This document shows positions 1 through 59,200 of a DNA stretch of 64,000 nt, piece after piece. The stretch is taken from the NCBI GenBank assembly GCA_031213475.1, contig JARUPZ010000005.1:8304988-8368987 (forward strand). The letters are read 5' to 3'. The notes below the pieces were generated by a model that saw only the letters and a program-made list of their open reading frames with translations, was not told where the DNA came from and did no database searches. Origin of the DNA: Nereocystis luetkeana. Lineage: Eukaryota > Sar > Phaeophyceae > Laminariales > Laminariaceae. A program made the translations under genes and the position numbers. Within the stretch, counting starts at the first letter, position 1. Each line of letters starts with the position of its first letter.

Positions 1-3000
1 TGTCTGAGCCAGTGGTGATCCCGGGCGCTGAGGACGGGAATGTTGTCGACGATGTGGTGGACAGTGACACCACTGCTAGGGTTGTGCAGGGCGCAGAGCG
101 TGAGGAGGAGGAGGTGATCGTGGTTGAATCGCTGACTGCTGTGGAGGAGCCTGCTCCGACCGATCAGGCTGCTTCTGGTGATGACGCAAAGGAGGCCCCT
201 GAGATTGATAATGAACCAGTGGTCTCCGTGATTGTGTCTAAGCCAGCGGAACTCCACGGGGTTGAGGACATGACCGTTGTCGACGATGTTGTGGGTAGTG
301 CCGGCACAGCCGAGGTTGTGCAGGACGTACAGCGTGAGAAGGAGGTGGCCGCGGTTGAATCGCTGACTGCTGTGGAGGAGCCTGCTCCGACCGATCAGGC
401 TGCTTCTGATGACGACGCAAAGGAGATCCAAGTGGTTGAAGATGAACCTGTGGTCTCCGTTATTGTGTCTGAGCTAGTGGAGATCCAGGGTGCTGAGGAC
501 GTGACCATTGTCAATGATGTGGTTGGCAGTGACGCCACGGCCGAGGTTGTCAAGGACACAGAGCGTGAGGAGGAGGTGCCCGCGGTTGAATCGCTGACTG
601 CTTCGGAGGAGCCTGCTCCGACCGATCAGGCTGTATCTGATGACGACGCAAAGGAGATCCAAGTGGTTGAAGATGAACCTGTGGTCTCCGTGATTGTGTC
701 TGAGCTAGTGGAGATCCAGGGTGCTGAGGACGTGACCATTGTCAACGATGTGGTTGGCAGTGACGCCACGGCCGAGGTTGTGCAGGACACAGAGCGTGAG
801 GAGGAGGTGCCCGCGGTTGAATCGCTGACTGCTGTTGAGGAGCCTGCTCCGACCGATCAGGCTGCTTCTGATGATGACTTGAAACAGACGCAAGTGGTTG
901 AGGATGAACTAGTGGTCTCCGTGAATGTGTCTGAGCCAGTGGTGATCCCGGGCGCTGAGGACGGGAATGTTGTCGACGATGTGGTGGACAGTGACACCAC
1001 TGCTAGGGTTGTGCAGGGCGCAGAGCGTGAGGAGGAGGAGGTGATCGTGGTTGAATCGCTGACTGCTGTTGAGGAGCCTGCTCCGACCGATCAGGCTGCT
1101 TCTGGTGATGACGCAAAGGAGGCCCCTGAGATTGATACTGAACCAGTGGTCTTCGTGATTGTGTCTGAGCCAGCGGAACTCCACGGGGTTGAGGACATGA
1201 CCGTTGTCGACGATGTGGTGGGTAGTGCCGGCACAGCCGAGGTTGTGCAGGACGTACAGCGTGAGAAGGAGGTGGCCGCGGTTGAATCGCTGACTGCTGT
1301 GGAGGAGCCTGCTCCGACCGATCAGGCTGCTTCTGATGACGACGCAAAGGAGATCCAAGTGGTTGAAGATGAACCTGTGGTCTCCGTTATTGTGTCTGAG
1401 CTAGTGGAGATCCAGGGTGCTGAGGACGTGACCATTGTCAATGATGTGGTTGGCAGTGACGCCACGGCCGAGGTTGTCAAGGACACAGAGCGTGAGGAGG
1501 AGGTGCCCGCGGTTGAATCGCTGACTGCTTCGGAGGAGCCTGCTCCGACCGATCAGGCTGTATCTGATGACGACGCAAAGGAGATCCAAGTGGTTGAAGA
1601 TGAACCTGTGGTCTCCGTGATTGTGTCTGAGCTAGTGGAGATCCAGGGTGCTGAGGACGTGACCATTGTCAACGATGTGGTTGGCAGTGACGCCACGGCC
1701 GAGGTTGTGCAGGACACAGAGCGTGAGGAGGAGGTGCCCGCGGTTGAATCGCTGACTGCTGTTGAGGAGCCTGCTCCGACCGATCAGGCTGCTTCTGATG
1801 ATGACTTGAAACAGACGCAAGTGGTTGAGGATGAACTAGTGGTCTCCGTGAATGTGTCTGAGCCAGTGGTGATCCCGGGCGCTGAGGACGGGAATGTTGT
1901 CGACGATGTGGTGGACAGTGACACCACTGCTAGGGTTGTGCAGGGCGCAGAGCGTGAGGAGGAGGAGGTGATCGTGGTTGAATCGCTGACTGCTGTTGAG
2001 GAGCCTGCTCCGACCGATCAGGCTGCTTCTGGTGATGACGCAAAGGAGGCCCCTGAGATTGATACTGAACCAGTGGTCTTCGTGATTGTGTCTGAGCCAG
2101 CGGAACTCCACGGGGTTGAGGACATGACCGTTGTCGACGATGTGGTGGGTAGTGACGGCACAGCCGAGGTTGTGCAGGACGTAGAGCGTGAGAAGGAGGT
2201 GGCCGCGGTTGAATCGCTGACTGCTGTGGAGGAGCCTGCTCCGACCGATCAGGCTGCTTCTGATGACGACGCAAAGGAGATCCAAGTGGTTGAAGATGAA
2301 CCTGTGGTCTCCGTGATTGTGTCTGAGCTAGTGGAGATCCAGGGTGCTGAGGACGTGACCATTGTCAATGATGTGGTTGGCAGTGACGCCACGGCCGAGG
2401 TTGTCAAGGACACAGAGCGTGAGGAGGAGGTGCCCGCGGTTGAATCGCTGACTGCTTCGGAGGAGCGTGCTCCGACCGATCAGGCTGTATCTGATGACGA
2501 CGCAAAGGAGATCCAAGTGGTTGAAGATGAACCTGTGGTCTCCGTGATTGTGTCTGAGCTAGTGGAGATCCAGGGTGCTGAGGACGTGACCATTGTCGAC
2601 GATGTGGTTGGCAGTGACGCCACGGCCGAGGTTGTGCAGGACACAGAGCGTGAGGAGGAGGTGCCCGCGGTTGAATCGCTGACTGCTGTTGAGGAGCCTG
2701 CTCCGACCGATGAGGCTGCTTCTGATGATGACTTGAAACAGACGCAAGTGGTTGAGGATGAACTAGTGGTCTCCGTGAATGTGTCTGAGCCAGTGGTGAT
2801 CCCGGGCGCTGAGGACGGGAATGTTGTCGACGATGTGGTGGACAGTGACACCACTGCTAGGGTTGTGCAGGGCGCAGAGCGTGAGGAGGAGGAGGTGATC
2901 GTGGTTGAATCGCTGACTGCTGTTGAGGAGCCTGCTCCGACCGATCAGGCTGCTTCTGGTGATGACGCAAAGGAGGCCCCTGAGATTGATGATGAACCAG

Positions 3001-6000
3001 TGGTCTCCGTGATTGTGTCTAAGCCAGCGGAACTCCACGGGGTTGAGGACATGACCGTTGTCGACGATGTGGTGGGTAGTGACGGCACTGCCGAGGTTGT
3101 GCAGGACGTACAGCGTGAGAAGGAGGTGGCCGCGGTTGAATCGCTGACTGCTGTGGAGGAGCCTGCTCCGACCGATCAGGCTGCTTCTGATGACGACGCA
3201 AAGGAGATCCAAGTGGTTGAAGATGAACCTGTGGTCTCCGTGATTGTGTCTGAGCTAGTGGAGATCCGGGGTGCTGAGGACGTGACCATTGTCAATGATG
3301 TGGTTGGCAGTGACGCCACGGCCGAGGTTGTCAAGGACACAGAGCGTGAGGAGGAGGTGCCCGCGGTTGAATCGCTGACTGCTTCGGAGGAGCGTGCTCC
3401 GACCGATCAGGCTGTATCTGATGACGACGCAAAGGAGATCCAAGTGGTTGAAGATGAACCTGTGGTCTCCGTGATTGTGTCTGAGCTAGTGGAGATCCAG
3501 GGTGCTGAGGATGTGACCATTGTCAACGATGTGGTTGGCAGTGATGCCATGGCCGAGGTTGTGCAGGACACAGAGCGTGAGGAGGAGGTGCCCGCGGTTG
3601 AATCGCTGACTGCTGTTGAGGAGCCTGCTCCGACCGATGAGGCTGCTTCTGATGATGACTTGAAACAGACGCAAGTGGTTGAGGATGAACTAGTGGTCTC
3701 CGTGAATGTGTCTGAGCCAGTGGTGATCCAGGGCGCTGAGGACGGGAATGTTGTCGACGATGTGGTGGACAGTGACACCACTGCTAGGGTTGTGCAGGGC
3801 GCAGAGCGTGAGGAGGAGGAGGTGATCGTGGTTGAATCGCTGACTGCTGTTGAGGAGCCTGCTCCGACCGATCAGGCTGCTTCTGGTGATGACGCAAAGG
3901 AGGCCCCTGAGATTGATAATGAACCAGTGGTCTCCGTGATTGTGTCGGAGCCAGCGGAACTCCACGGGGGTGAGGACATGACCGTTGTCGACGATGTGGT
4001 GGGTAGTGACGGCACAGCCGAGGTTGTGCAGGACGTAGAGCGTGAGAAGGAGGTGGCCGCGGTTGAATCGCTGACTGCTGTGGAGGAGCCTGCTCCGACC
4101 GATCAGGCTGCTTCTGATGACGACGCAAAGGAGATCCAAGTGGTTGAAGATGAACCTGTGGTCTCCGTGATTGTGTCTGAGCTAGTGGAGATCCAGGGTG
4201 CTGAGGACGTGACCATTGTCAATGATGTGGTTGGCAGTGACGCCACGGCCGAGGTTGTCAAGGACACAGAGCGTGAGGAGGAGGTGCCCGCGGTTGAATC
4301 GCTGACTGCTTCGGAGGAGCGTGCTCCGACCGATCAGGCTGTATCTGATGACGACGCAAAGGAGATCCAAGTGGTTGAAGATGAACCTGTGGTCTCCGTG
4401 ATTGTGTCTGAGCTAGTGGAGATCCAGGGTGCTGAGGATGTGACCATTGTCAACGATGTGGTTGGCAGTGATGCCACGGCCGAGGTTGTGCAGGACACAG
4501 AGCGTGAGGAGGAGGTGCCCGCGGTTGAATCGCTGACTGCTGTTGAGGAGCCTGCTCCGACCGATGAGGCTGCTTCTGATGATGACTTGAAACAGACGCA
4601 AGTGGTTGAGGATGAACTAGTGGTCTCCGTGAATGTGTCTGAGCCAGTGGTGATCCCGGGCGCTGAGGACGGGAATGTTGTCGACGATGTGGTGGACAGT
4701 GACACCACTGCTAGGGTTGTGCAGGGCGCAGAGCGTAAGGAGGAGGAGGTGATCGTGGTTGAATCGCTGACTGCTGTTGAGGAGCCTGCTCCGACCGATC
4801 AGGCTGCTTCTGGTGATGACGCAAAGGAGGCCCCTGAGATTGATAATGAACCAGTGGTCTCCGTGATTGTGTCTGAGCCAGCGGAACTCCACGGGGGTGA
4901 GGACATGACCGTTGTCGACGATGTGGTGGGTAGTGACGGCACAGCCGAGGTTGTGCAGGACGTAGAGCGTGAGAAGGAGGTGGCCGCGGTTGAATCGCTG
5001 ACTGCTGTGGAGGAGCCTGCTCCGACCGATCAGGCTGCTTCTGATGACGACGCAAAGGAGATCCAAGTGGTTGAAGATGAACCTGTGGTCTCCGTGATTG
5101 TGTCTGAGCTAGTGGAGATCCGGGGTGCTGAGGACGTGACCATTGTCAATGATGTGGTTGGCAGTGACGCCACGGCCGAGGTTGTCAAGGACACAGAGCG
5201 TGAGGAGGAGGTGCCCGCGGTTGAATCGCTGACTGCTTCGGAGGAGCGTGCTCCGACCGATCAGGCTGTATCTGATGACGACGCAAAGGAGATCCAAGTG
5301 GTTGAAGATGAACCTGTGGTCTCCGTGATTGTGTCTGAGCTAGTGGAGATCCAGGGTGCTGAGGATGTGACCATTGTCAACGATGTGGTTGGCAGTGATG
5401 CCATGGCCGAGGTTGTGCAGGACACAGAGCGTGAGGAGGAGGTGCCCGCGGTTGAATCGCTGACTGCTGTTGAGGAGCCTGCTCCGACCGATGAGGCTGC
5501 TTCTGATGATGACTTGAAACAGACGCAAGTGGTTGAGGATGAACTAGTGGTCTCCGTGAATGTGTCTGAGCCAGTGGTGATCCAGGGCGCTGAGGACGGG
5601 AATGTTGTCGACGATGTGGTGGACAGTGACACCACTGCTAGGGTTGTGCAGGGCGCAGAGCGTGAGGAGGAGGAGGTGATCGTGGTTGAATCGCTGACTG
5701 CTGTTGAGGAGCCTGCTCCGACCGATCAGGCTGCTTCTGGTGATGACGCAAAGGAGGCCCCTGAGATTGATAATGAACCAGTGGTCTCCGTGATTGTGTC
5801 TGAGCCAGCGGAACTCCACGGGGGTGAGGACATGACCGTTGTCGACGATGTGGTGGGTAGTGACGGCACAGCCGAGGTTGTGCAGGACGTAGAGCGTGAG
5901 AAGGAGGTGGCCGCGGTTGAATCGCTGACTGCTGTGGAGGAGCCTGCTCCGACCGATCAGGCTGCTTCTGATGACGACGCAAAGGAGATCCAAGTGGTTG

Positions 6001-9000
6001 AAGATGAACCTGTGGTCTCCGTGATTGTGTCTGAGCTAGTGGAGATCCAGGGTGCTGAGGACGTGACCATTGTCAATGATGTGGTTGGCAGTGACGCCAC
6101 GGCCGAGGTTGTCAAGGACACAGAGCGTGAGGAGGAGGTGCCCGCGGTTGAATCGCTGACTGCTTCGGAGGAGCGTGCTCCGACCGATCAGGCTGTATCT
6201 GATGACGACGCAAAGGAGATCCAAGTGGTTGAAGATGAACCTGTGGTCTCCGTGATTGTGTCTGAGCTAGTGGAGATCCAGGGTGCTGAGGATGTGACCA
6301 TTGTCAACGATGTGGTTGGCAGTGATGCCACGGCCGAGGTTGTGCAGGACACAGAGCGTGAGGAGGAGGTGCCCGCGGTTGAATCGCTGACTGCTGTTGA
6401 GGAGCCTGCTCCGACCGATGAGGCTGCTTCTGATGATGACTTGAAACAGACGCAAGTGGTTGAGGATGAACTAGTGGTCTCCGTGAATGTGTCTGAGCCA
6501 GTGGTGATCCCGGGCGCTGAGGACGGGAATGTTGTCGACGATGTGGTGGACAGTGACACCACTGCTAGGGTTGTGCAGGGCGCAGAGCGTAAGGAGGAGG
6601 AGGTGATCGTGGTTGAATCGCTGACTGCTGTTGAGGAGCCTGCTCCGACCGATCAGGCTGCTTCTGGTGATGACGCAAAGGAGGCCCCTGAGATTGATAA
6701 TGAACCAGTGGTCTCCGTGATTGTGTCTGAGCCAGCGGAACTCCACGGGGGTGAGGACATGACCGTTGTCGACGATGTGGTGGGTAGTGACGGCACAGCC
6801 GAGGTTGTGCAGGACGTAGAGCGTGAGAAGGAGGTGGCCGCGGTTGAATCGCTGACTGCTGTGGAGGAGCCTGCTCCGACCGATCAGGCTGCTTCTGATG
6901 ACGACGCAAAGGAGATCCAAGTGGTTGAAGATGAACCTGTGGTCTCCGTGATTGTGTCTGAGCTAGTGGAGATCCGGGGTGCTGAGGACGTGACCATTGT
7001 CAATGATGTGGTTGGCAGTGACGCCACGGCCGAGGTTGTCAAGGACACAGAGCGTGAGGAGGAGGTGCCCGCGGTTGAATCGCTGACTGCTTCGGAGGAG
7101 CGTGCTCCGACCGATCAGGCTGTATCTGATGACGACGCAAAGGAGATCCAAGTGGTTGAAGATGAACCTGTGGTCTCCGTGATTGTGTCTGAGCTAGTGG
7201 AGATCCAGGGTGCTGAGGATGTGACCATTGTCAACGATGTGGTTGGCAGTGATGCCATGGCCGAGGTTGTGCAGGACACAGAGCGTGAGGAGGAGGTGCC
7301 CGCGGTTGAATCGCTGACTGCTGTTGAGGAGCCTGCTCCGACCGATGAGGCTGCTTCTGATGATGACTTGAAACAGACGCAAGTGGTTGAGGATGAACTA
7401 GTGGTCTCCGTGAATGTGTCTGAGCCAGTGGTGATCCAGGGCGCTGAGGACGGGAATGTTGTCGACGATGTGGTGGACAGTGACACCACTGCTAGGGTTG
7501 TGCAGGGCGCAGAGCGTGAGGAGGAGGAGGTGATCGTGGTTGAATCGCTGACTGCTGTTGAGGAGCCTGCTCCGACCGATCAGGCTGCTTCTGGTGATGA
7601 CGCAAAGGAGGCCCCTGAGATTGATAATGAACCAGTGGTCTCCGTGATTGTGTCTGAGCCAGCGGAACTCCACGGGGGTGAGGACATGACCGTTGTCGAC
7701 GATGTGGTGGGTAGTGACGGCACAGCCGAGGTTGTGCAGGACGTAGAGCGTGAGAAGGAGGTGGCCGCGGTTGAATCGCTGACTGCTGTGGAGGAGCCTG
7801 CTCCGACCGATCAGGCTGCTTCTGATGACGACGCAAAGGAGATCCAAGTGGTTGAAGATGAACCTGTGGTCTCCGTGATTGTGTCTGAGCTAGTGGAGAT
7901 CCAGGGTGCTGAGGACGTGACCATTGTCAATGATGTGGTTGGCAGTGACGCCACGGCCGAGGTTGTCAAGGACACAGAGCGTGAGGAGGAGGTGCCCGCG
8001 GTTGAATCGCTGACTGCTTCGGAGGAGCGTGCTCCGACCGATCAGGCTGTATCTGATGACGACGCAAAGGAGATCCAAGTGGTTGAAGATGAACCTGTGG
8101 TCTCCGTGATTGTGTCTGAGCTAGTGGAGATCCAGGGTGCTGAGGATGTGACCATTGTCAACGATGTGGTTGGCAGTGATGCCACGGCCGAGGTTGTGCA
8201 GGACACAGAGCGTGAGGAGGAGGTGCCCGCGGTTGAATCGCTGACTGCTGTTGAGGAGCCTGCTCCGACCGATGAGGCTGCTTCTGATGATGACTTGAAA
8301 CAGACGCAAGTGGTTGAGGATGAACTAGTGGTCTCCGTGAATGTGTCTGAGCCAGTGGTGATCCCGGGCGCTGAGGACGGGAATGTTGTCGACGATGTGG
8401 TGGACAGTGACACCACTGCTAGGGTTGTGCAGGGCGCAGAGCGTAAGGAGGAGGAGGTGATCGTGGTTGAATCGCTGACTGCTGTTGAGGAGCCTGCTCC
8501 GACCGATCAGGCTGCTTCTGGTGATGACGCAAAGGAGGCCCCTGAGATTGATAATGAACCAGTGGTCTCCGTGATTGTGTCTGAGCCAGCGGAACTCCAC
8601 GGGGGTGAGGACATGACCGTTGTCGACGATGTGGTGGGTAGTGACGGCACAGCCGAGGTTGTGCAGGACGTAGAGCGTGAGAAGGAGGTGGCCGCGGTTG
8701 AATCGCTGACTGCTGTGGAGGAGCCTGCTCCGACCGATCAGGCTGCTTCTGATGACGACGCAAAGGAGATCCAAGTGGTTGAAGATGAACCTGTGGTCTC
8801 CGTGATTGTGTCTGAGCTAGTGGAGATCCAGGGTGCTGAGGACGTGACCATTGTCAATGATGTGGTTGGCAGTGACGCCACGGCCGAGGTTGTCAAGGAC
8901 ACAGAGCGTGAGGAGGAGGTGCCCGCGGTTGAATCGCTGACTGCTTCGGAGGAGCGTGCTCCGACCGATCAGGCTGTATCTGATGACGACGCAAAGGAGA

Positions 9001-12000
9001 TCCAAGTGGTTGAAGATGAACCTGTGGTCTCCGTGATTGTGTCTGAGCTAGTGGAGATCCAGGGTGCTGAGGATGTGACCATTGTCAACGATGTGGTTGG
9101 CAGTGATGCCACGGCCGAGGTTGTGCAGGACACAGAGCGTGAGGAGGAGGTGCCCGCGGTTGAATCGCTGACTGCTGTTGAGGAGCCTGCTCCGACCGAT
9201 GAGGCTGCTTCTGATGATGACTTGAAACAGACGCAAGTGGTTGAGGATGAACTAGTGGTCTCCGTGAATGTGTCTGAGCCAGTGGTGATCCCGGGCGCTG
9301 AGGACGGGAATGTTGTCGACGATGTGGTGGACAGTGACACCACTGCTAGGGTTGTGCAGGGCGCAGAGCGTAAGGAGGAGGAGGTGATCGTGGTTGAATC
9401 GCTGACTGCTGTTGAGGAGCCTGCTCCGACCGATCAGGCTGCTTCTGGTGATGACGCAAAGGAGGCCCCTGAGATTGATAATGAACCAGTGGTCTCCGTG
9501 ATTGTGTCTGAGCCAGCGGAACTCCACGGGGGTGAGGACATGACCGTTGTCGACGATGTGGTGGGTAGTGACGGCACAGCCGAGGTTGTGCAGGACGTAG
9601 AGCGTGAGAAGGAGGTGGCCGCGGTTGAATCGCTGACTGCTGTGGAGGAGCCTGCTCCGACCGATCAGGCTGCTTCTGATGACGACGCAAAGGAGATCCA
9701 AGTGGTTGAAGATGAACCTGTGGTCTCCGTGATTGTGTCTGAGCTAGTGGAGATCCGGGGTGCTGAGGACGTGACCATTGTCAATGATGTGGTTGGCAGT
9801 GACGCCACGGCCGAGGTTGTCAAGGACACAGAGCGTGAGGAGGAGGTGCCCGCGGTTGAATCGCTGACTGCTTCGGAGGAGCGTGCTCCGACCGATCAGG
9901 CTGTATCTGATGACGACGCAAAGGAGATCCAAGTGGTTGAAGATGAACCTGTGGTCTCCGTGATTGTGTCTGAGCTAGTGGAGATCCAGGGTGCTGAGGA
10001 TGTGACCATTGTCAACGATGTGGTTGGCAGTGATGCCATGGCCGAGGTTGTGCAGGACACAGAGCGTGAGGAGGAGGTGCCCGCGGTTGAATCGCTGACT
10101 GCTGTTGAGGAGCCTGCTCCGACCGATGAGGCTGCTTCTGATGATGACTTGAAACAGACGCAAGTGGTTGAGGATGAACTAGTGGTCTCCGTGAATGTGT
10201 CTGAGCCAGTGGTGATCCAGGGCGCTGAGGACGGGAATGTTGTCGACGATGTGGTGGACAGTGACACCACTGCTAGGGTTGTGCAGGGCGCAGAGCGTGA
10301 GGAGGAGGAGGTGATCGTGGTTGAATCGCTGACTGCTGTTGAGGAGCCTGCTCCGACCGATCAGGCTGCTTCTGGTGATGACGCAAAGGAGGCCCCTGAG
10401 ATTGATAATGAACCAGTGGTCTCCGTGATTGTGTCTGAGCCAGCGGAACTCCACGGGGGTGAGGACATGACCGTTGTCGACGATGTGGTGGGTAGTGACG
10501 GCACAGCCGAGGTTGTGCAGGACGTAGAGCGTGAGAAGGAGGTGGCCGCGGTTGAATCGCTGACTGCTGTGGAGGAGCCTGCTCCGACCGATCAGGCTGC
10601 TTCTGATGACGACGCAAAGGAGATCCAAGTGGTTGAAGATGAACCTGTGGTCTCCGTGATTGTGTCTGAGCTAGTGGAGATCCAGGGTGCTGAGGACGTG
10701 ACCATTGTCAATGATGTGGTTGGCAGTGACGCCACGGCCGAGGTTGTCAAGGACACAGAGCGTGAGGAGGAGGTGCCCGCGGTTGAATCGCTGACTGCTT
10801 CGGAGGAGCGTGCTCCGACCGATCAGGCTGTATCTGATGACGACGCAAAGGAGATCCAAGTGGTTGAAGATGAACCTGTGGTCTCCGTGATTGTGTCTGA
10901 GCTAGTGGAGATCCAGGGTGCTGAGGATGTGACCATTGTCAACGATGTGGTTGGCAGTGATGCCACGGCCGAGGTTGTGCAGGACACAGAGCGTGAGGAG
11001 GAGGTGCCCGCGGTTGAATCGCTGACTGCTGTTGAGGAGCCTGCTCCGACCGATGAGGCTGCTTCTGATGATGACTTGAAACAGACGCAAGTGGTTGAGG
11101 ATGAACTAGTGGTCTCCGTGAATGTGTCTGAGCCAGTGGTGATCCCGGGCGCTGAGGACGGGAATGTTGTCGACGATGTGGTGGACAGTGACACCACTGC
11201 TAGGGTTGTGCAGGGCGCAGAGCGTAAGGAGGAGGAGGTGATCGTGGTTGAATCGCTGACTGCTGTTGAGGAGCCTGCTCCGACCGATCAGGCTGCTTCT
11301 GGTGATGACGCAAAGGAGGCCCCTGAGATTGATAATGAACCAGTGGTCTCCGTGATTGTGTCTGAGCCAGCGGAACTCCACGGGGGTGAGGACATGACCG
11401 TTGTCGACGATGTGGTGGGTAGTGACGGCACAGCCGAGGTTGTGCAGGACGTAGAGCGTGAGAAGGAGGTGGCCGCGGTTGAATCGCTGACTGCTGTGGA
11501 GGAGCCTGCTCCGACCGATCAGGCTGCTTCTGATGACGACGCAAAGGAGATCCAAGTGGTTGAAGATGAACCTGTGGTCTCCGTGATTGTGTCTGAGCTA
11601 GTGGAGATCCAGGGTGCTGAGGACGTGACCATTGTCAATGATGTGGTTGGCAGTGACGCCACGGCCGAGGTTGTCAAGGACACAGAGCGTGAGGAGGAGG
11701 TGCCCGCGGTTGAATCGCTGACTGCTTCGGAGGAGCGTGCTCCGACCGATCAGGCTGTATCTGATGACGACGCAAAGGAGATCCAAGTGGTTGAAGATGA
11801 ACCTGTGGTCTCCGTGATTGTGTCTGAGCTAGTGGAGATCCAGGGTGCTGAGGACGTGACCATTGTCAATGATGTGGTTGGCAGTGACGCCACGGCCGAG
11901 GTTGTCAAGGACACAGAGCGTGAGGAGGAGGTGCCCGCGGTTGAATCGCTGACTGCTTCGGAGGAGCGTGCTCCGACCGATCAGGCTGTATCTGATGACG

Positions 12001-13911: not shown

Positions 13912-16900
13912 AGGCCGTGGTGATCCCGGGGGCTGAGGACGGGAACGTTGTCGACGATGTGGTTGGCAGTGACACCACTGCTAGGGTTATGCAGGGCGCA
14001 GAGCGTGAGGAGGAGGAGGTGATCGTGGTTGAATCGCCGACTGCTCTTGAGGAGCCTGCTCCGACCGATCAGGCTGCTTCTGATGATGACGCAAAGGAGG
14101 CCCCTGAGATTGATAATGAACCAGTGGTCTCCGTGGTCGTGTCTGAGCCAGCGGAACTCCACGAGGTTGAGGACGTGACCGTTGTCGACGATGTGGTGGG
14201 TAGTGACGCCACGGCCGAGGTTGTGCATGACGCAGAGCGTGAGAAGGAGGTGGCCGCGGTTGAATCGCTGACTGCTGTGGAGGAGCCTGCTCCGACCGAT
14301 CAGGCTGCTTCTGATGACGACGCAAAGGAGATCCAAGTGGTTGAAGATGAACCTGTGGTCTCCGTGATTGTGTCTGAGCCAGCGGAGATCCAGGGTGCTG
14401 AGGACGTGACCGTTGTCAACGATGTGGTTGGCAATGACGCCACGGCCGAGGTTGTGCAGGACACAGAGCGTGAGGAAGAGGTGCCCGCGGTTGAATCGCT
14501 GACTGCTGTTGAGGAGCCTACTCCGACCGATGAGGCTGCTTCTGATGATGCCTCAAACCAGACGCAAGTGGTTGAGGATGAACTAGTGGTCTCCGTGATT
14601 GTGTCTGAGCCAGTGGTGATCCAGGGGGCTGAAGACGTGACCGTTGTCGACGATGTGGTGGACAGTGACACCACGTCCAGGGTTGTGCAGGGCGCAGAGC
14701 GTGAGGAGGAGGAGGTGATCGTGGTTGAATCGCTGACTGCTCTTGGGGGGCCTGCTCCGACCGATCAGGCTGCTTCTGATGATGACGCAAAGGAGGCCCC
14801 TGAGATTGATAATGAACCAGTGGTCTCCGTGATTGTGTCTGAGCCAGCGGAACTCCACGGGGTTGACGACGTGACCGTTGTCGACGATGTGGTGGGTAGG
14901 GACGCCACGGCCGAGGTTGTGCATGACGCAGAGCGTGAGAAGGAGGTGGCCGCGGTTGAATCGCTGACTGCTGTGGAGGAGCCTGCTCCGACCGATCAGG
15001 CTGCTTCTGATGACGACGCAAAGGAGATCCAAGTGGTTGAAGATGACCCCGTGGTTGTCGACGCTGTGGCCGTCATGGTGGAGACGGACAACCTGCCGGT
15101 CACGGACACTGTCGATGTCGGGGCCAGTTGCGAGATGGAGACCGCTGTTTTGGACGACACTGAGCCCGATGAGCAGGGTGATTTGGACGTCGGTGCCCCG
15201 ATTCCGGTGGAGGATGTTACTCCAGCCGGGCCTACCACGGTGTCGGACGTCTCGATTGAGGCGACCACAAACGAGGCAGACCCAACAGCCGTCAAGGAGC
15301 TATCAAGTCCGGTGGAGGCTGAACAACCTGTGGCCGTGAACGATATCAACGCTGTGACTACCAGGGATATCGAAACAGAGAATGTGGAAAAGGGCCTGCC
15401 GCAGGTGGACACGTTGGTGGCGGACATGTCGACCTCGACCGAGGAATCTGCTCCAATCGAGACAGTGCCTGCTGCCGCTGAATCCCAACAGACACCTGAG
15501 ATTGATAATGAACAAGCGGTTGTCTCGGACGAGACTGACCCAGTGGAGATCCAGGGTACTGAGGACAGGAACGTTGTCGACGATGTGGTGGACAGTGACA
15601 CCACTGCTAGGGTTCTACAAGGCGCAGAGCGTGAGGAAGAGGAGGTGATCGTGGTTGAATCGCCGACTGCTGTTGAGGAGCCTGCTCCGACCGATCAGGC
15701 TGCTTCTGATGATGACGCAAAGGAGGCCCCTGAGATTGATAATGAACCAGTGGTCTCCGTGAATGTGTCTGAGCCAGTGGAGATCCACGGGGTTGAGGAC
15801 GTGACCGTTGTCGACGATGTGATTGGCAGTGACGCCACGGCCGAGGTTGTGCAGGACGCAGAGCGTGAGAAGGAGGTGGCCGCGGTTGAATCGCTGACTG
15901 CTGCGGAGGAGCGTGCTCCGACCGATCAGGCTGCTTCTGATGACGACGCAAAGGAGATCCAAGTGGTTGAAGATGAATCAGTGGTCTCCGTGATTGTGTC
16001 TGAGCCAGTGGAGATCCAGGGAGCTGAGGACGTGACCGTTGTCAACGGTGTGGTTGGCAGTGACGCTACGGCCGAGGTTGTGCAGGACACAGAGCGTGAG
16101 GAGGAGGGGCCCGCGGTTGAATCGCTGACTGCTGTTGAGGAGCCTGCTCCGACCGATAAGGCTGCTTCTGATGATGACTTGAAACAGACGCAAGTGGTTG
16201 AGGATGAACCCGTGGTTGTCGACGCTGTGGCCGTCCTAGTGGAGACGGACAACCTGCCGGTCACGGACACTGTCGACGTCGGGGCCATTTGCGAGATGGA
16301 GACCGCTGTTTTGGACGACACTGAGCCCGATGAGCAGGGTGATTTGGACGTCGGTGCCCCGATTCCGGTGGAGGATGTTACTCCAGCCGGGCCTACCACG
16401 GTGTCGGACGTCTCGATTGAGGCGACCACAAACGAGGCAGACCCAACAGCCGTCGAGGAGCTATCAAGTCCGGTGGAGGCTGAACAACCTGTGGCCGTGA
16501 ACGATATCAACGCTGTGACTACCAGGGATATCGAAACAGATAATGTGGAAAAGGGCCTGCCGCAGGTGGACACGTTGGTGGCGGACATGTCGACCTCGAC
16601 CGAGGAATCTGCTCCAATCGAGACAGTGCCTGCTGCCGCTGAATCCCAACAGACACCTGAGATTGATAATGAACAAGCGGTTGTCTCGGACGAGACTGAC
16701 CCAGTGGAGATCCAGGGTACTGAGGACAGGAACGTTGTCGACGATGTGGTGGACAGTGACTCCACTGCTAGGGTTCTACAAGGCGCAGAGCGTGAGGAAG
16801 AGGAGGTGATCGTGGTTGAATCGCCGACTGCTCTTGAGGAGCCTGCTCCGACCGATCAGGCTGCTTCTGATGATGACGCAAAGGAGGCCCCTGAGATTGA

Positions 16901-19900
16901 TAATGAACCAGTGGTCTCCGTTATTGTGTCTGAGCCAGTGGAGATCCACGGGGTTGAGGACGTGACCGTTGTCGACGATGTGATTGGCAGTGACGCCACG
17001 GCCGAGGTTGTGCAGGACGCAGAGCGTGAGAAGGAGGTGGCCGCGGTTGAACCGCTGACTGCTGCGGAGGAGCGTGCTCCGACCGATCAGGCTGCTTCTG
17101 ATGACGACGCAAAGGAGATCCAAGTGGTTGAAGATGAATCAGTGGTCTCCGTGATTGTGTCTGAGCCAGTGGAGATCCAGGGAGCTAAGGACGTGACCGT
17201 TGTCAACGGTGTGGTTGGCAGTGACGCTACGGCCGAGGTTGTGCAGGACACAGAGCGTGAGGAGGAGGTGCCCGCGGTTGAATCGCTGACTGCTGTTGAG
17301 GAGCCTGCTCCGACCGATAAGGCTGCTTCTGATGATGACTTGAAACAGACGCAAGTGGTTGAGGATGAACCCGTGGTTGTCGACGCTGTGGCCGTCCTAG
17401 TGGAGACGGACAACCTGCCGGTCACGGACACTGTCGACGTCGGGGCCATTTGCGAGATGGAGACCGCTGTTTTGGACGACACTGAGCCCGATGAGCAGGG
17501 TGATTTGGACGTCGGTGCCCCGATTCCGGTGGAGGATGTTACTCCAGCCGGGCCTACCACGGTGTCGGACGTCTCGATTGAGGCGACCACAAACGAGGCA
17601 GACCCAACAGCCGTCGAGGAGCTATCAAGTCCGGTGGAGGCTGAACAACCTGTGGCCGTGAACGATATCAACGCTGTGACTACCAGGGATATCGAAACAG
17701 AGAATGTGGAAAAGGGCCTGCCGCAGGTGGACACGTTGGTGGCGGACATGTCGACCTCGACCGAGGAATCTGCTCCAATCGAGACAGTGCCTGCTGCCGC
17801 TGAATCCCAACAGACACCTGAGATTGATAATGAACAAGCGGTTGTCTCGGACGAGACTGACCCAGTGGAGATCCAGGGTACTGAGGACAGGAACGTTGTC
17901 GACGATGTGGTGGACAGTGACACCACTGCTAGGGTTCTACAAGGCGCAGATCGTGAGGAAGAGGAGGTGATCGTGGTTGAATCGCCGACGGCTCTTGAGG
18001 AGCCTGCTCCGACCGATCAGGCTGCTTCTGATGATGACGCAAAGGAGGCCCCTGAGATTGATAATGAACCAGTGGTCTCCGTGAATGTGTCTGAGCCAGC
18101 GGAAATCCAGGGGGCTGAGGACGTGACCGTTGTCGACAATGTGGTGGGCAGTGACGCCACGGCCGAGGTTGTGCAGGACGCAGAGCGTGAGAAGGAGGCG
18201 GCCGCGGTTGAATCGCCGACTGCTCTTGAGGAGCCTGCTCTGACCGATCAGGTTGCTTCTGATGATGACGTTAAGGAGTCCCCTGAGATTGAGGATGAAC
18301 CAGTGGTCTCCGTGATTGTGTCTGAGCCAGTGGAGATGCAGGGCGCTGAGGACGTGACCGTTGTCGACGATGTGGTGAGCAGTGACGCCACGGCCGAGGT
18401 TGTGCAGGACGCAGAGCGTGAGGAAGAGGAGGTGATCGTGGTTGAATCGCCGACTTCTCTTGAGGATCCTGCTCCGACCAATCAGGCTGCAAAGGAGGCC
18501 CCTGAGATCGCTAATGAACGAGTGGTCTCCGTGATTGTGTCTGAGCCAGTGGAGATGCAGGGCGCTGAGGACGTGACCGTTGCCGACGATGTGGTGGGCA
18601 GTGACGCCCCGGCCGAGGTTGTGCAGGACGCAAAGCGTGAGGAGGAGGAGGAGGTGACAGTGGGTGAATCGCTGACTGCTGTTGAGGAGCCTGCTCCGAC
18701 CGATCATGCTTCGTGTGATGATGACTCAAACCATACGAAAGTGGTTGAGGATAAACCAGTGGTCTCCGTGATTGTGACTGAGCCAGTGGGGATCCAGGGT
18801 GCTGAGGAAGTGAACGTTGTCGACGATGTGGTGGACAGTGACACCACTGCCAAGGTTGTGCAGGACGCAGAGCGTGAGGAGGAGGAGGTGACCGTGGTTG
18901 AATCACCGACTGCTGTTAAGGAGCCTGCTCCGACCGATCGAGCTACGTCTGAGGATGACGCAAAGGAGACCCAAGTGGTTGAGGATGAACCTGTGGTCTC
19001 CGTGATTGTGACTGAGCCAGTGGAGATGCAGGGCGCTGAGGACGGGAACGTGGTCGACGATGTGGTGGACAGTGACATCACTGCCAAGGTCGTGCCGAAC
19101 GCAGTGCGTGAGGAGGAGGGGGTGACCGTGGTTGAATCGCCGACTGCAGTGGAGGAGCCTGCTTCGGCCGATCAGGCTTCTTATGATGATGACGCAAACG
19201 AAACCCAAGTGGTTGAGGATGAACCAGTGGCCTCTGCGATTGTGACTGAGCCAGTGGAGATCCACGTCGCAGAGGACGCGAACGTTGTCGACGATGTGGT
19301 GGACAAGGAAGTGGCCGCATCTGTACCACCAGCCGGAGTGAAGCAGGCTGCTCCGACCGATCAAGCTTCTTGTGAAGACGATTCGAACGAGACACCCGCG
19401 GTTAAAGATGACCTAGAGGTCGACGATGCTGTAGCTGATCCAGTGGACACGGAAGGGATGCCAGTCGTGCAAAATGTCGACGCTATCATGAGTAGAGAGA
19501 TGGTGACCGTGGTTGTGGAAGAGACCGAACCTGAAGAGGAGGACCAGGTGGTGGTGGCTGCGACGATCTCGGTGGAGGATGCCGCTCCAGCCGAGCCAAC
19601 TACAATGGCGGCTGTCTCAATTATAGCGGCAATGGGCGAGGATGACCCCGCGGTCGTCACGGCCGTGAATAAGCCTGTGGCGGCCGAATATCCAGTCGGT
19701 ATGGATGACGTCGAACCTGCTGCAACCAGGGAAATCGAAGCCGAGGTTGTGGAAGACGACGAGCCCGAGGCGGACACGTTAGCCGTTGACGTTCGTACCC
19801 CGACCAAGGATGCTACTTCACCCAAGCCGACGTCTGCTCCCCTTGCTATCGCTGAACCCCCAGAGACATGCGCTATTAAAGTCCAACGAGCGGTCGTACT

Positions 19901-22900
19901 GCCTGTGACGGAGCCAGGGGAGATACACGCCTTTGAGGATGTGAGCATTCTGGACGATATGGTGGCCAATGGAATCAAGACCGAGGCTGCGCAGTATGCA
20001 GAGCGTCAAGAGGAGCTGGTCGTGGTTGTATCGCCGACCGCAGTCGAGGAGGCCGCTCCAACTGATCAAGCTGTTTCCGCCGATGGTTCAAACCAGACGC
20101 CCGCGGTTGAGGATGAGTCAGTGCTCATTGATATTGGAGCTGACCCAGTGGAGACCGAAGAGCTGTCGGGCAATGTCGACGCTGTCGTGAGTGTCTCAGT
20201 TGAGGTACCCACGGGCGAGGATGAGCCCGTGGTCGTTGGGGCTAAGGCTCAAAAAGCGGAGGCCGAGGAGCCAGTCGCCGTTGACGACGTCGACGTTGCG
20301 GAAGACGCCGAGGTTGAGAAGCACAATTTGGATATTGAAGCGCCAACTATGACCGAGGGTGCTCATCCTACCGCATCAGGCTCTGCTGCCGATAATTCAC
20401 CGCATACACCGGTGATTGAAGATAAACCCGCCGTCGTTAGGGCTGTGACTGGTCCAGTAGATATTGCGGAGCCAGCGGCTTTGGACGTCAATGACCTTGG
20501 CGTAGCAAAGAAGACCAAGGCCCAGATTGTGGAAGGTATGGAGCTTGAGGCAGACGATGCTGTGGTCGTACCGGCCGAGAATGCTACTCCGATCGAGCCA
20601 GCTGCTGTGGCTGCGAGCCCCAAGCCACCTGCCGTTGAGGACGAACTTGTGGTCGTCGAGGCTGTGGTGGAGCCGATGGAGACTGCAGAACCGGTGATCA
20701 TGGACGTTGTCGACGCCATGGTAACCAAGGGGTTCAAGCCCGTCGTTTCCCACGATGCAGAGCCTTTGCAAGGGTTGGCTGTGGTATTTCGATCAACCTC
20801 AGTTGACGTTCGTGTTCCGACCGACCAAGCTGCTACAGGTGTCAACTTGGTTGAGGCGCCTGCGATTGATGGTGAACCCGTGGTCACCGGGGCTGTGGTT
20901 GGTGCAATCGAACCTGAAGAGCTTCCGGGGATGGGTGACGTTGAATATATGGTGACCGGTGAGATTGAGGGCGAAGGTGTAGAAGACATTGAGTCTGGGG
21001 AGCAGGAAAAGGTGATCGATGCCCCGATGCGGCCGGAGATGATTGCTCCGGGCGAACCCCCTGCAGTGGCGGGTGTGCCAGTTGGCGATCCTACGAGTGA
21101 GAGTGAGTCCGTGCTCATTAAGGCTCTGGCCGAGCCTGTGGAAGCTGGAGGGTCAATAGCTACGAACGACGTCGATGCTGGGGTGGCCAACGAGGTGGAG
21201 GCCGAGGTTGTGAAAGACAACCACCCTGGGGCGGACGAATCGATAGATGAAGCGTCAAATATGAACAAGGAAGCCGCTCCGTTCGAGCTACCTTGTGCTG
21301 CCGCTGATTCACCAGAGAGACCTGCAAGCGAAGATAAACCCACGCCCATCGAGGTTCTGAGTGCCTCAGTGGACACAGAAGTATCTGAGGAAGTGGATGG
21401 CATCGTCACTGTAGTGACCAGGGATATCGAGGCGGTGATTGTCGAAGACGCCGACCCTGAGGAGAAGGAGGAGGTGTTGGTCGCTGCCACGATCCCGGCC
21501 GATGATGCTGCTCCAGTCGAACCAACTACGGTGACGGATGCTCCAGTTGAGCTGGCCGCAGGCGAGGATATGTTCGCTGTCATTGAGGCTATGGCTGGAT
21601 CTGTGCATGCCGAACAGGCAGTGGCCATGGACAATGCTGATGCTGCGGTGGTCAAAGATCTCGGGTGCGGCGTTGTAGAAGAAATTGAAGCAGAAGCGAA
21701 CATAGTCGTAGTTGAAGCACCAACCACGACCGAGGGCTCTGCTCTAACCGAGCCCGTTTCTGCTCCTGATAATTCATCGGAGACACTCGCGGCCAAGAGT
21801 GAAAAGGCTGTTGTCGAGGCTGTGGTGGAGCTAACGGAGACAGAAGCTGCCGAGGACGTAGGCGCTGTTTACGACCTGGTGACAAGGGACACCAAGGCCG
21901 CGGTTGTGGCGTGCACAGAGCATAAAGAGAAGGTAGCAGCGGTTTTCCCGCCGACCCCGGTCAAGGCTTCTGCTCCGACGGACCAAGCTGCTGCGCCCGA
22001 CAACTTACCCGAGACGCCCGCGGTTGAGGGCGAACCCATGGATATCGAGGCTGTGGCTGACCCACTGGAGACTGAAGAGTCAACAGTAGCGCTGAACGTC
22101 GACGATGTGATCACCAGGGAGATCGAGGTCGCGGTTTTGAGAGACGACGATCCTGAGGAGGAAGAAGTGCTGATCGCTGCCATGGTCCCGGCCGAGGATA
22201 TTGATCCTACTGTTGCAGAGGCGGATGCCTCAGTTAAGACGTCCCCGGTCGAGGATAAGTATACAGTCGTCGAGGCCATGGATGAGCCTGTGGAGGTTGA
22301 CGAGCCACGCGCCGTGGGCTATGTCGATTATGCGGCCACCAACGAGATCAAGGCCAAGGCTGTGGAAGAGGCCAAGCCTGAGGCGGAGAAGTTGATGTTT
22401 GAGGCACCGACCACGACAGAGGGTGCTGCTCCAACCGAGTACATCGCTACGGACGATATCTCACCAACGATGTCTGCGGCTGAAGATGAACCTGCGGTCG
22501 CCAAGGATGTTGTTGATCCACTGGAGACTAAACAGCCGGCGGTGATGGACGATGTCGACGCTTTGGTGACCAGGGATATCAAAACCGAGGTTGTAGACAA
22601 CGCGGAGTCTATGGAAGATGTGGGGGTGGTTGTACCGCCAACCCCTTATGTCGCTCCGACCTATCAACTAGCTACTGCATACGTCGAGGCTGTGGCGGAG
22701 CTAGTGGAAACTAGAGATCTTGCGACCATAGACGATGTTCAAGCTGAAGTGACCAGGGAGATCGAGACTGAGGTTATGGAAGACGCCGAACCTGAGGTGG
22801 ACGAGTCGGTGACCGAAGCACCGACCCTGGCTGAAGATGTTTCTCCGACCGAGCCAGCTCGTGGTGCAGATGACTTTAAACAGACGACTCCGGTTGAAGA

Positions 22901-25900
22901 CCCAATAACAGCTGTGGAGGCTGTGGTAAACCTGGTGGAAACTATAGAGCCGGGGACCGTAGACGATGTCGATGCTTCAGTAGCGGCCAAGGATATCGAG
23001 GCCGAGGCTTTGGATGGTGCGGATCCTGAGGCGGAAGTGGCGTTGGTCGACGATCCGACGCCGGCGGAAGATTCCGCTCGGTCCGAATCAGCTACCACGG
23101 CCGCCAACACGCTTGAAATGCCCGCATGCGAGAAAGAGTCTGCGGTCATCCAGGCAGTGATCGAGCCAGTGGGGGCTAGAGAAACGGCGGACGTAGAAAG
23201 TTCGGATGCCATGGAGACCAAGGAGATCGAGACTAATGCCGTAGAAGGTGCAGAGACTGGCACAAACGTGCCGGTGGTCGCTGCGCCGGCTCCGGTCGAA
23301 GGTGTTACTCTGACGGCCCCAGCTGCTTTGGCCGACGACAACCCTATTGTTTCAGCAGGCGAGATAGGACTGGCGACCATGGGGGATGTGTCTGAGTCAG
23401 TAACAGCTGAAGAGATGGTGATCTTTGGCCGTCCCGACACCGTCCTCACCAGGGAGATGGATGCGAAGGCTGTGGCAGGGGCTCTGTCCGAAGAAGAGGT
23501 GGTGGTGACCGCCCAGAAAGTGGAAACTGCTAGTTTCGGTGAGAGGTTATGAGGAGTTTGGGTGGAGATTTGGTTTGGTTCTTGCGGTTACGTTGGGGTG
23601 GGTGGCTCAAGGAAAACTACAGTTTTCAAGGCAAGCCAGTTGAGAGTCGGGTTGAATGGCTTGACGAGGAGCAGATAGGTAAGATCACTTTGGCAGCTGG
23701 TTCGATTCAATCGAGCATCAAGGTTACCTCCAATCAGAACAGTATGGACTCTACCTTACAATGCATCGAAACTCATCCTCGTTACCCACTAAAATAATAT
23801 TGCTGCATTGCTCCAAAATGATTGTAGTGTACTTACTAAAGTAGTATCGGCGTGGGACCTCAAACTATGGGACACCTAAAGTGATGGGGCACCTAAAGTT
23901 CTGCTATCATTTAAAGTCACTGCCCAACCGATCTTCCATTGACCGCGCTCGCCTTTCAGTGCCTGCGGCGGAAAGGAGCGAGGTCGAGAAACAACCTATT
24001 CCTGCAGCAAACGCCCTCTCTGGGCCGAGGTCTGTTGCCGTACCTGTAGGGCCAGCTACTGACTCTCCAGCAATTGTTCCAGACGATACGACGGGTCCGA
24101 TCGGAAGTGTATCCATGGAAATCACAACGGAGTCAGAAGCAGAAGCTCATGCAGCAAGCGCTCTCTCTGAGCCGAGGTCTGTTGCCATATCTGGAGGATC
24201 AGATACCGAATCTCCACCAATTGTTCCAGACGATGCGACGGGTCCAATCGGAGATGTATCCATGGAGATCGCAGCAAAGTCGGAAGAAGAAACTCCGATG
24301 TCCAGGACACCTCTGCTGGAACCAGCTGCTGCGGCTGATGACTCGCTGCAGACGTCCTTCGTCAAGGAGGAGTTGATGGCGGTCCAGGTTGTGGGCGAAA
24401 TGGCGGAGGTGGAAGAGCTGGCGTTAGTCGAAATGGTTCCCAACGAAGTAGCTGTTGAAACTGTGGGCCCTGCTTTGGCTGTTGACGAGGAGGCCACGGT
24501 CCAAGCTTGCTCGAAGCCTAAAAAGGAGGTCGCAAGAAACATCGGGGAGAGTGAGATTGCTCGTATTGGTGAGAGGCTGGGGTATGATGCTACTGGTTTG
24601 CTGTGATAGGTCTGCTGGTGCTGAACGGCGGTTGTTTTCGAGTGGCTGCGTAGAAAACTGATACGAAATATAACGAGAAATGATTGTGCCTTCCGGGTCT
24701 GGGGGGTGTTGCTGGGGATCTATGGCAAACACATGGGGATAAATAGACTCGTTGGTGCGGGCAGGCCTCGAGTTATGCCCATATGCCCTACGCCTCGATC
24801 ATGGCACCCCACATCAGGTGGTACTGCACATTACACGCACGCAAACTGGCTACGTAGATTGCACCGTTACATCCTAAGCTGATAATGGGCATCTGAAAAA
24901 CAAATATCAACAAGTCCGTCGCGTGCTCACACTGACCCGCTGCCCGTACGTCTTGGACTTCTGCTCTGCCCGATGCCTCATGCTGGTCAAATCAGCGAAC
25001 ATCCCCGGTTTTGATGACAGTGACTCAGATGGTGTAGACGAGGAGCCTGGAGCGAGAGAAACTGTGGTCGCTGATGGGGCCCCTACTGCCGGTAAGAGCT
25101 ATTTTGTGGCGTAAACTTCTGCTTTGTTCCGTCGAGGAGTAATGGCCTGTACTTACACTCGATGTACGGTGTTGAACATGTGCCGTAGCCGTTGAAGAAA
25201 CTGAAAAGCTGACGGTATCACGCCGTGGGCTACGGTTTGCACTCCAAGAAAAACTTGCTGGAGATAGGTAAAAGATGCTTAGAAGGCGCTTACAGAACGT
25301 CGGTTGTTCTGAGTCTGAGATGCCGATTGGAACCGAATGTGACTTCTAGTATCGTTTTGTGGGCTACCTATATCTACGTACCTATGTTTGATTTTGCGGG
25401 CGTTATTGGTTGTTTAGTCAGCGCTCTTTAATGGTAATTGTCCTGCACAATTTGCAATAGTGCTTAAATGTTTTACCCTACAACGATCTGGCATTCCCCG
25501 CGCCCCCACAAGACTTTCAACGCATTTTCTGCACGTTCTATCTACCTCATTTCTTTGAGTTCGCTGAAGCCATGTGACGAACGGTGAGGTCTCGATCATG
25601 GCACCTAAACTCAGAGAACGCCGTTTATAATCATAATTCGACTATTGCGCCTGCAGCCGATATGGAAGCCGGCCCCCGAGCAGCGATATTGGAGGAAAAG
25701 GTTGACTTCGGCAACACGGCCGCTCCCGAGGAAAAGGAGGTATCGCAGGAGACTTGCATTCATGCAGGTACTGATATGGAGGTGGCGGCGGTCGCAGACG
25801 AAACTACAAGTACGACTACCGGTGAGCAGTGTGACGGAGAGGTTTTAACCGAATACCCTACAATAGACAGGTTTTGTTTCGGGACTGTTTGTCGCTGATT

Positions 25901-58935: not shown

Positions 58936-58965
58936 TCAGCTGCTGAAGCTGCTGCTGCTGCTGCT

Positions 58966-59030
<65 letters not shown>

Positions 59031-59037
59031 TGCTGCT

Positions 59038-59100
<63 letters not shown>

Positions 59101-59110
59101 CTGCTGCTTG
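58936..59110 (+). repeat. CTG/CAG trinucleotide tract, about 170 bp
   Basis: Nearly 60 triplets of GCT/CTG are interrupted by TTG and TTC triplets. It reads as poly-Leu or, on the other strand, poly-Ala in frames that cannot be linked to a gene. It lies between SINE-like elements in a gene-poor stretch. Confidence 0.95.
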
Positions 59111-59200
59111 CTGGATTACGGATTCCCTCTATAGAAGTCGTTATGTGCCTACCAGATACCTTTGAGCTGGGATACCATCCAGCATATGCCATCGTACCCC

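What the first reader, a model, noticed from the sequence alone, without database searches (positions are those of the whole stretch)
1..23538. Satellite-like higher-order repeat hierarchy inside a single 23.5-kb coding exon
Three nested periods are visible in frame: ~231 bp (77 aa), 927 bp (four modules) and 1854 bp (a dimer of two alternating 927-bp types), plus a separate 1161-bp compound unit in three copies. Homogeneous copies lie 5' and increasingly diverged copies 3'. This is the organisation known for centromeric higher-order repeats, but here it is protein-coding with every change a multiple of three. I recognise no described protein family with this architecture.
Basis: partly seen in the sequence, partly recalled or inferred. 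Interest (0 to 1): 0.88.

Follow-up and report, generated by a model that had tools for sequence, protein, structure and literature searches.

The report
Giant in-frame repeat exon, brown alga
A genome that is probably a brown seaweed's carries two neighbouring genes whose giant exons are built almost wholly of many copies of one acidic unit of about 77 amino acids, multiplied in blocks like satellite DNA yet kept in reading frame; this way of growing is known from silk and mucin genes, but the protein family seems undescribed.

Summary
The open frame runs 29 kb further upstream: one inferred exon of 52,737 nt (w -29198..23538; 17,579 codons, no stop), followed by four inferred exons in frame to a conserved stop at 27424, about 18,270 residues in all, 1.9 MDa, pI 4. 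A second gene just upstream has the same layout and a 25.5-kb giant exon. One ~77-aa module, 341 copies, covers 99.1% and 97.7% of the two giant open frames. Higher-order units are clear (4 modules = 927 nt, 5 = 1161 nt, 3 in the upstream gene); the middle of each array is homogeneous and both edges are diverged, as unequal exchange or gene conversion would give. The 1854-nt dimer exists but rests on 4 differing bases per 927. First and last exons are conserved in relatives. No Pfam, NCBIfam or PDB relative was found for the parts scanned. Best reading: a giant, polyanionic, probably disordered protein, selected for frame and acidity more than for exact sequence. Spider silk and mucin exons are the known parallels in mode of growth, not relatives. 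Transcription, copy number and function are untested.

The parts
1..23538 (+). 3' 45% of the giant exon of gene B (whole inferred exon w -29198..23538, 52,737 nt, symmetric phase 1, donor TTTCG|gtgagagg)
   Evidence: stop-free frame w -29508..23549; boundaries by sequence; spliced frame stays open. Inferred, no transcripts.
3..13445 (+). 4-module (ADBC, 927 nt) higher-order block; 13 ADBC units in the module string, one with an extra D module
15069..18089 (+). 5-module (LGCAB, 1161 nt) higher-order block, two full units and an LGC remainder
18090..23538 (+). diverged 3' edge of the array, single modules outside any cluster
   Evidence: nearest-copy identity falls to 0.81 (w 18-20 kb bin) and 0.61-0.62 (w 20-24 kb bins); unclustered
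23960..24568 (+). inferred first 3' exon of gene B; holds a module fragment and a 147-nt internal duplication
   Evidence: module profile 14.6 bits against at most 3.3 in 50 shuffles
24996..25091 (+). inferred short exon (FDDSDSDG...ETVVADGAPTA), with a counterpart in gene A at w -36083..-35982
   Evidence: likeness to A judged by eye
25657..25821 (+). inferred short acidic exon of gene B
26241..27424 (+). terminal exon of gene B with basic stretch and stop codon
   Evidence: 10 database relatives besides the window's own, alignment, tree; found in this genome at A and B only

Best explanation
Shown: the stretch is the 3' part of one of two neighbouring, anciently duplicated genes whose central exons consist almost wholly of a ~77-aa acidic module, amplified in local higher-order blocks, with the reading frame kept and the last exon conserved in relatives. 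Inferred: the array grows and homogenises by unequal exchange and gene conversion inside a single phase-symmetric exon, so that its length can change in steps of the module without disturbing splicing or frame. The product is an intracellular, mostly disordered polyanion of megadalton size (net charge about -4,158 over the giant open frame of B) with a conserved head (seen for gene A, no obvious signal peptide) and a conserved basic tail that probably anchors it by charge to a membrane, nucleic acid or the cytoskeleton. It works as a bulk charged brush or multivalent scaffold, in which length and acidity matter and exact sequence matters little.
For: 341 modules over 97.7% and 99.1% of the two open frames (profile trained on the same sequences). 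Different higher-order units in A and B, homogeneous middle, diverged edges on both sides. No stop in 17,579 and 8,528 codons where a crude lower bound expects about 46 and 33; indels of three in 21 of 21; the joined model is open over 18,264 codons with one terminal stop. Terminal exon conserved in 10 database proteins, first exon of A in 3 relatives plus one near-identical entry, with the match of exon 1 ending at the donor. pN/pS 0.69-0.86 in all identity bins: weak constraint on residues. Composition V 19.2, E 15.9, A 12.0, D 11.6% for B. AlphaFold2 of one module: mean pLDDT 45.5, pTM 0.14.
Against: No transcript, peptide or raw reads were available. The charge-hydropathy rule puts the B giant exon and exon 1 of A on the disordered side but the A giant exon and the B terminal exon on the folded side. 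Low pLDDT with only 33 rows may mean too little information. A search with the diverged 3' array found no relative among 7,997 scored candidates, so conservation of the array itself is not shown. The start of gene B is not established: nothing like exon 1 of A lies near it and exon 1 is single-copy. Candidate exons were chosen partly by phase, so uniform phase 1 is partly built in. Location and anchoring are guesses from sequence.
Confidence: 0.6

Rival explanations
1. Gene B has no start of its own: its giant exon and tail are an alternative 3' cassette of the upstream gene, spliced to that gene's single conserved exon 1, so one locus of about 104 kb makes two megadalton products.
For: Exon 1 occurs once in the genome and none of six 5' exon segments of A has a match near B, while the tails of A and B are both kept in relatives. 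Inferred junctions share phase 1.
Against: A short in-frame start (MFDLPPLPPLHDDDQ) with a phase-1 donor just 5' of the B exon is possible (judged by eye). The phase was partly a selection criterion. Splicing would have to skip the A giant exon and read past the A stop.
Confidence: 0.2
2. The number of homogeneous 927-nt units is an assembly error: copies were multiplied or collapsed.
For: Several units are identical over 927 nt. The assembly holds many near-identical plastid copies (131 RuBisCO matches), so it is not cleaned. FAZ10 of trypanosomes shows how a repeat gene can be mis-sized: predicted 502 kDa, about 2,000 kDa on blots (passages of PMC5358337).
Against: The edges, the 5-module blocks and the whole array of A are diverged and in frame, so at most the count of the homogeneous units is in doubt. 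The contig is 13.6 Mb.
Confidence: 0.12
3. Non-coding satellite-like array that happens to be open in one frame.
For: Organisation like centromeric satellites; pN/pS not far below 1; long antisense open frames in A (up to 1,840 codons) show that codon use alone thins out stops.
Against: No stop in 17,579 codons though modules at the edges are only 0.54-0.7 identical to their nearest copy; indels of three only; flanking exons conserved in relatives. A DNA search with the 927-nt unit scored matches at this locus only (12 matches; few candidates scored, so a lower bound).
Confidence: 0.03
4. A recently silenced gene: the frame is intact but no longer expressed.
For: No expression data were available.
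Against: The tail is conserved as two types, A and B, in several relatives, and a fast-changing array would lose its frame soon without selection (expected stops).
Confidence: 0.06

Closest known systems
Spider dragline silk genes MaSp1 and MaSp2 (PMC1885213, passages seen)
   Same: One huge coding exon made of repeats with higher-order units of about 70 to over 2,000 bp, homogenised by recombination, ends less homogenised
   Different: 9.4 and 11.3 kb single-exon genes; glycine- and alanine-rich, for spun fibres. Here 52.7 and 25.5 kb inferred exons in multi-exon genes, acidic and valine-rich, nearly no glycine-type silk motifs seen
Mucin repeat exons, above all MUC12 (PMC13345508, a preprint, passages seen)
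   Same: A single repeat exon of tens of kb, degenerate array boundaries, predicted protein up to 23,080 aa
   Different: Mucin repeats are O-glycosylated on secreted or membrane proteins (recalled); here the residues are mostly V, E, A, D and no signal peptide was apparent in exon 1 of A
Giant repeat proteins of trypanosomes such as FAZ10 (PMC5358337, passages seen)
   Same: Megadalton-class protein with near-identical repeats (52 copies of 35 aa) whose size was underestimated from the assembly
   Different: Coiled coils of the flagellum attachment zone; here no coiled coil was tested and the module is acidic, ~77 aa
Pf332 of the malaria parasite (PMC2680261, passages seen)
   Same: Giant intracellular repetitive tail (over 600 kDa); acidic repeats recalled from memory
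   Different: Has a DBL domain and a membrane anchor; no sequence relation was tested beyond Pfam and NCBIfam scans of parts
Centromeric alpha-satellite higher-order repeats (recalled)
   Same: Monomers in local multimers, homogeneous middle, diverged edges
   Different: Non-coding and far larger; here coding, frame kept, under 60 kb

Membership tests
Coding exon with higher-order tandem repeats (the kind seen in silk and mucin genes) | Monomers grouped in repeated multimers inside one open frame | tested here: met
Coding exon with higher-order tandem repeats (the kind seen in silk and mucin genes) | Homogenised middle, diverged edges | tested here: met
   both giant exons
Coding exon with higher-order tandem repeats (the kind seen in silk and mucin genes) | Transcribed and translated | not testable with these tools
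   no RNA or peptide data on hand
Coding exon with higher-order tandem repeats (the kind seen in silk and mucin genes) | Length differs between individuals | not testable with these tools
   no second haplotype of the array; only flanking exons have near-identical database entries (P0010, P0014)
Spidroin or silk fibroin | Glycine- and alanine-rich repeat motifs | tested here: not met
   G 3.5% in B and 3.2% in A; V, E, A, D dominate
Mucin | Repeat domain dominated by proline, threonine and serine (recalled definition) | tested here: not met
   P+T+S about 20% in B and 19% in A, against D+E 27.5% and 25.7%
Mucin | Secreted or membrane-tethered, O-glycosylated | not tested
   exon 1 of A shows no obvious signal peptide by eye; no predictor was run
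Any Pfam or NCBIfam family | Score over the curated cut-off | tested here: not met
   on parts only: w 3-6002, w 18003-23549, first 2,000 codons of the B frame, the 3' exons and exon 1 of A; the A giant exon and w 6003-18002 were not scanned

The most novel reading that the evidence does not exclude
One brown-algal locus of about 104 kb with a single conserved first exon makes two alternative megadalton polyanions by splicing it to one of two giant repeat cassettes. The invariant EWV.V motif after acidic residues in that exon, which resembles Atg8-binding (LIR) motifs as I recall them and was not tested, would tie the charged brush to membranes or autophagy.
Probability: 0.12. Interest if true: 0.78.

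Novelty: new variant of a known kind. Interest (0 to 1): 0.56.

Why it matters
It carries the silk and mucin mode of evolution, higher-order amplification inside one coding exon, to a probable brown alga and to an acidic protein without apparent secretion signal, and gives two neighbouring copies that evolved different higher-order units from one module. That makes the turnover of coding arrays measurable between strains and raises a plain question: what does a cell do with a 1.9-MDa polyanion? Genes of this kind are easily split or missed by standard annotation.

Tried and rejected
Rejected: a tandem family of separate genes (no stop between modules); a non-coding satellite (see rivals); membership in silk or mucin families; a Pfam, NCBIfam or PDB relative for the parts scanned. 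The weak matches of array pieces (Pfam E 0.006-0.22, NCBIfam E 0.0025-0.013) have no passing stretch and lie far below the cut-offs; weak matches of exon 1 of A (E 0.018 and 0.36) and of the A terminal exon (E 0.34) have one stretch each and are also below the cut-offs; two PDB matches of the terminal-exon profile have E 0.45 and 0.74. Rfam: nothing at gathering score in the window.

Led nowhere: a protein search with the diverged 3' array (none at E 0.001 among 7,997 scored); a triple-module alignment too gappy to use, replaced by single modules; paper searches for such a gene in brown algae or stramenopiles, whose listings showed none; I judged listings only, and most subscription papers are not held. 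Of 13 exon segments scored with the module profile, three clearly exceed all 50 of their shuffles (A exon 5, A exon 6, first 3' exon of B), A exon 3 just does (4.3 against 4.0) and nine do not; origin of the array from a short exon is suggested, not shown. AlphaFold of the terminal exon was never run.
Full report
SETTING. The window is contig C5:8304988-8368987 of a 465-Mb assembly in 1987 contigs; w stands for C5 position minus 8304987. The genome has a RuBisCO large subunit gene (locus L033) whose sequence I recognise from memory as red-type, and 150 scored EsV-1-7 motifs out of 1,718 candidates, against none in 14 control genomes. A passage of PMC7457493 says that EsV-1-7 genes have expanded in brown algae and are patchy elsewhere. 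A brown alga is therefore likely. The five control genomes named are prokaryotes, so that control says little about other eukaryotes.

THE ARRAY IS LONGER THAN THE WINDOW. Upstream DNA shows one stop-free frame from w -29508 to 23549, 17,686 codons. A likely acceptor puts the exon at -29198..23538, 52,737 nt. A second giant stop-free frame lies at w -62733..-37000, 8,578 codons; the inferred exon is -62612..-37080, 25,533 nt.

GENE LAYOUT (inferred; no transcripts). After the giant exon of B come exons 23960-24568, 24996-25091, 25657-25821 and 26241-27424. Joined, they give 18,264 codons with one stop, at the end. Gene A shows matching 3' exons in the same order, judged by eye, with an extra acidic stretch before its terminal exon; 5' of its giant exon it has a first exon at w -76417 and acidic exons of 135-150 aa, of which I resolved four and left one candidate unresolved. 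Junctions are phase 1, usually G|GTGAG. I chose candidates partly by this phase, so the independent support is conservation: exon 1 of A matches three relatives at 65-78% identity and one near-identical entry, and the match ends at the residues read from the donor. Exon 1 occurs once in the genome. The terminal exon matches 10 database proteins besides the window's own (only the 8,000 best candidates were scored); one, P0010, is nearly identical to gene A. The tree has a fully supported A clade (six rows, 100/100); the other six rows are B, P0003-P0006 and P0012, the last on a long branch whose place the program calls unsure. In this genome the terminal exon is found at A and B only. The duplication is thus older than the split of several relatives, which the database does not name.

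MODULE AND HIGHER-ORDER UNITS. An iterated profile of the ~77-aa module finds 341 copies, 111 in A and 230 in B, covering 97.7% and 99.1% of the two open frames; 326 of 341 match at least 70 profile steps. The profile was trained on these sequences, so coverage is no independent test. Clustering gives, along B, 20 single modules, then MEGCA, NEFIA and HEFCA pentamers, mixed AB and ABC stretches, 13 ADBC tetramers (927 nt), three LGC(AB) units (1161 nt) and 26 singles; along A, 36 singles, short D, E, F, G blocks, 13 ABC trimers with two H insertions, and 7 singles. Letters of A and B were assigned apart and do not correspond. Nearest-copy identity rises from 0.55-0.7 at the edges to 1.0 in the middle of both exons. 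Units 6, 8, 11 and units 7, 9, 12 of the 927-nt block are identical within each set and 4 nt apart between sets; unit 10 is 2 nt from each, like a recombinant. I infer unequal exchange and gene conversion from this pattern.

CODING STATUS. There is no stop in 17,579 codons of B and 8,528 of A. Half of the summed differences to nearest copies, a crude lower bound of substitutions, would give about 46 and 33 stops without selection. Indels between near copies are multiples of three in 21 of 21 cases. pN/pS between modules is 0.81 for B and 0.71 for A over 1,500 pairs each, and 0.69-0.86 in identity bins (the highest bin of A has 5 pairs). Pairs are not independent and counts are uncorrected. The frame is guarded, the residues drift with weak constraint.

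PROTEIN. The open frame of B is V 19.2, E 15.9, A 12.0, D 11.6%, net charge -4,158. With a tentative start the model protein has 18,278 residues, 1.91 MDa, pI 4.05. AlphaFold2 of one module with a 33-row alignment gives mean pLDDT 45.5 and pTM 0.14, as for disorder or for too little information. The charge-hydropathy rule is split: B giant exon and A exon 1 on the disordered side, A giant exon and B terminal exon on the folded side. The terminal exon has a conserved basic stretch (KKIFKKIFRKKGKRRRASKKKK in B) and ends in MDTE in 11 of 12 aligned rows, VGTE in P0012. Exon 1 of A holds E-W-V-x-V after acidic residues, invariant in the 5 aligned rows, two of which are this species or nearly so; its likeness to an Atg8-binding motif is recalled, not tested.

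WHAT IT WORKS LIKE, AND WHAT IT IS. It grows like spidroin and mucin exons (passages), and by the composition tested it belongs to neither. The parts scanned match nothing over the cut-offs in Pfam or NCBIfam, and no PDB sequence convincingly. I therefore call it a new variant of a known kind: a giant in-frame higher-order repeat exon in a protein family for which I found no name. I do not claim a record size.

UNCERTAIN. Expression, unit number in the living alga, the start of B, fold, location and function. Commitment: a megadalton polyanionic brush or scaffold held by its basic tail, with length free to vary.

Noticed in passing
window 58939-59113: Run of about 58 GCT triplets.
   Followed up: no
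window 63773-63952: Tandem repeats of 74 nt (about 2 copies) and 21 nt at the end of the window.
   Followed up: no
window 39965-40063: Partial Myb-like DNA-binding match on the + strand, E 0.00073, below the Pfam cut-off.
   Followed up: partly
w -58600..-49391 (L010-L011), - strand: Two antisense open frames of 1,840 and 1,229 codons inside the A giant exon, put down to codon use of the sense strand.
   Followed up: no
G000, many contigs: 131 RuBisCO large-subunit matches, many full-length and equal in score on separate contigs: the assembly seems to hold many plastid copies, some broken by stops.
   Followed up: no
L012 7700-7983 (terminal exon of gene A) against P0010: A near-identical database entry lacks part of an alanine run present here and differs at a few residues: length variants exist outside the giant exon too.
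   Followed up: no
window 30591-31787, - strand: Open frame of 398 codons with no Pfam match over the cut-off.
   Followed up: partly
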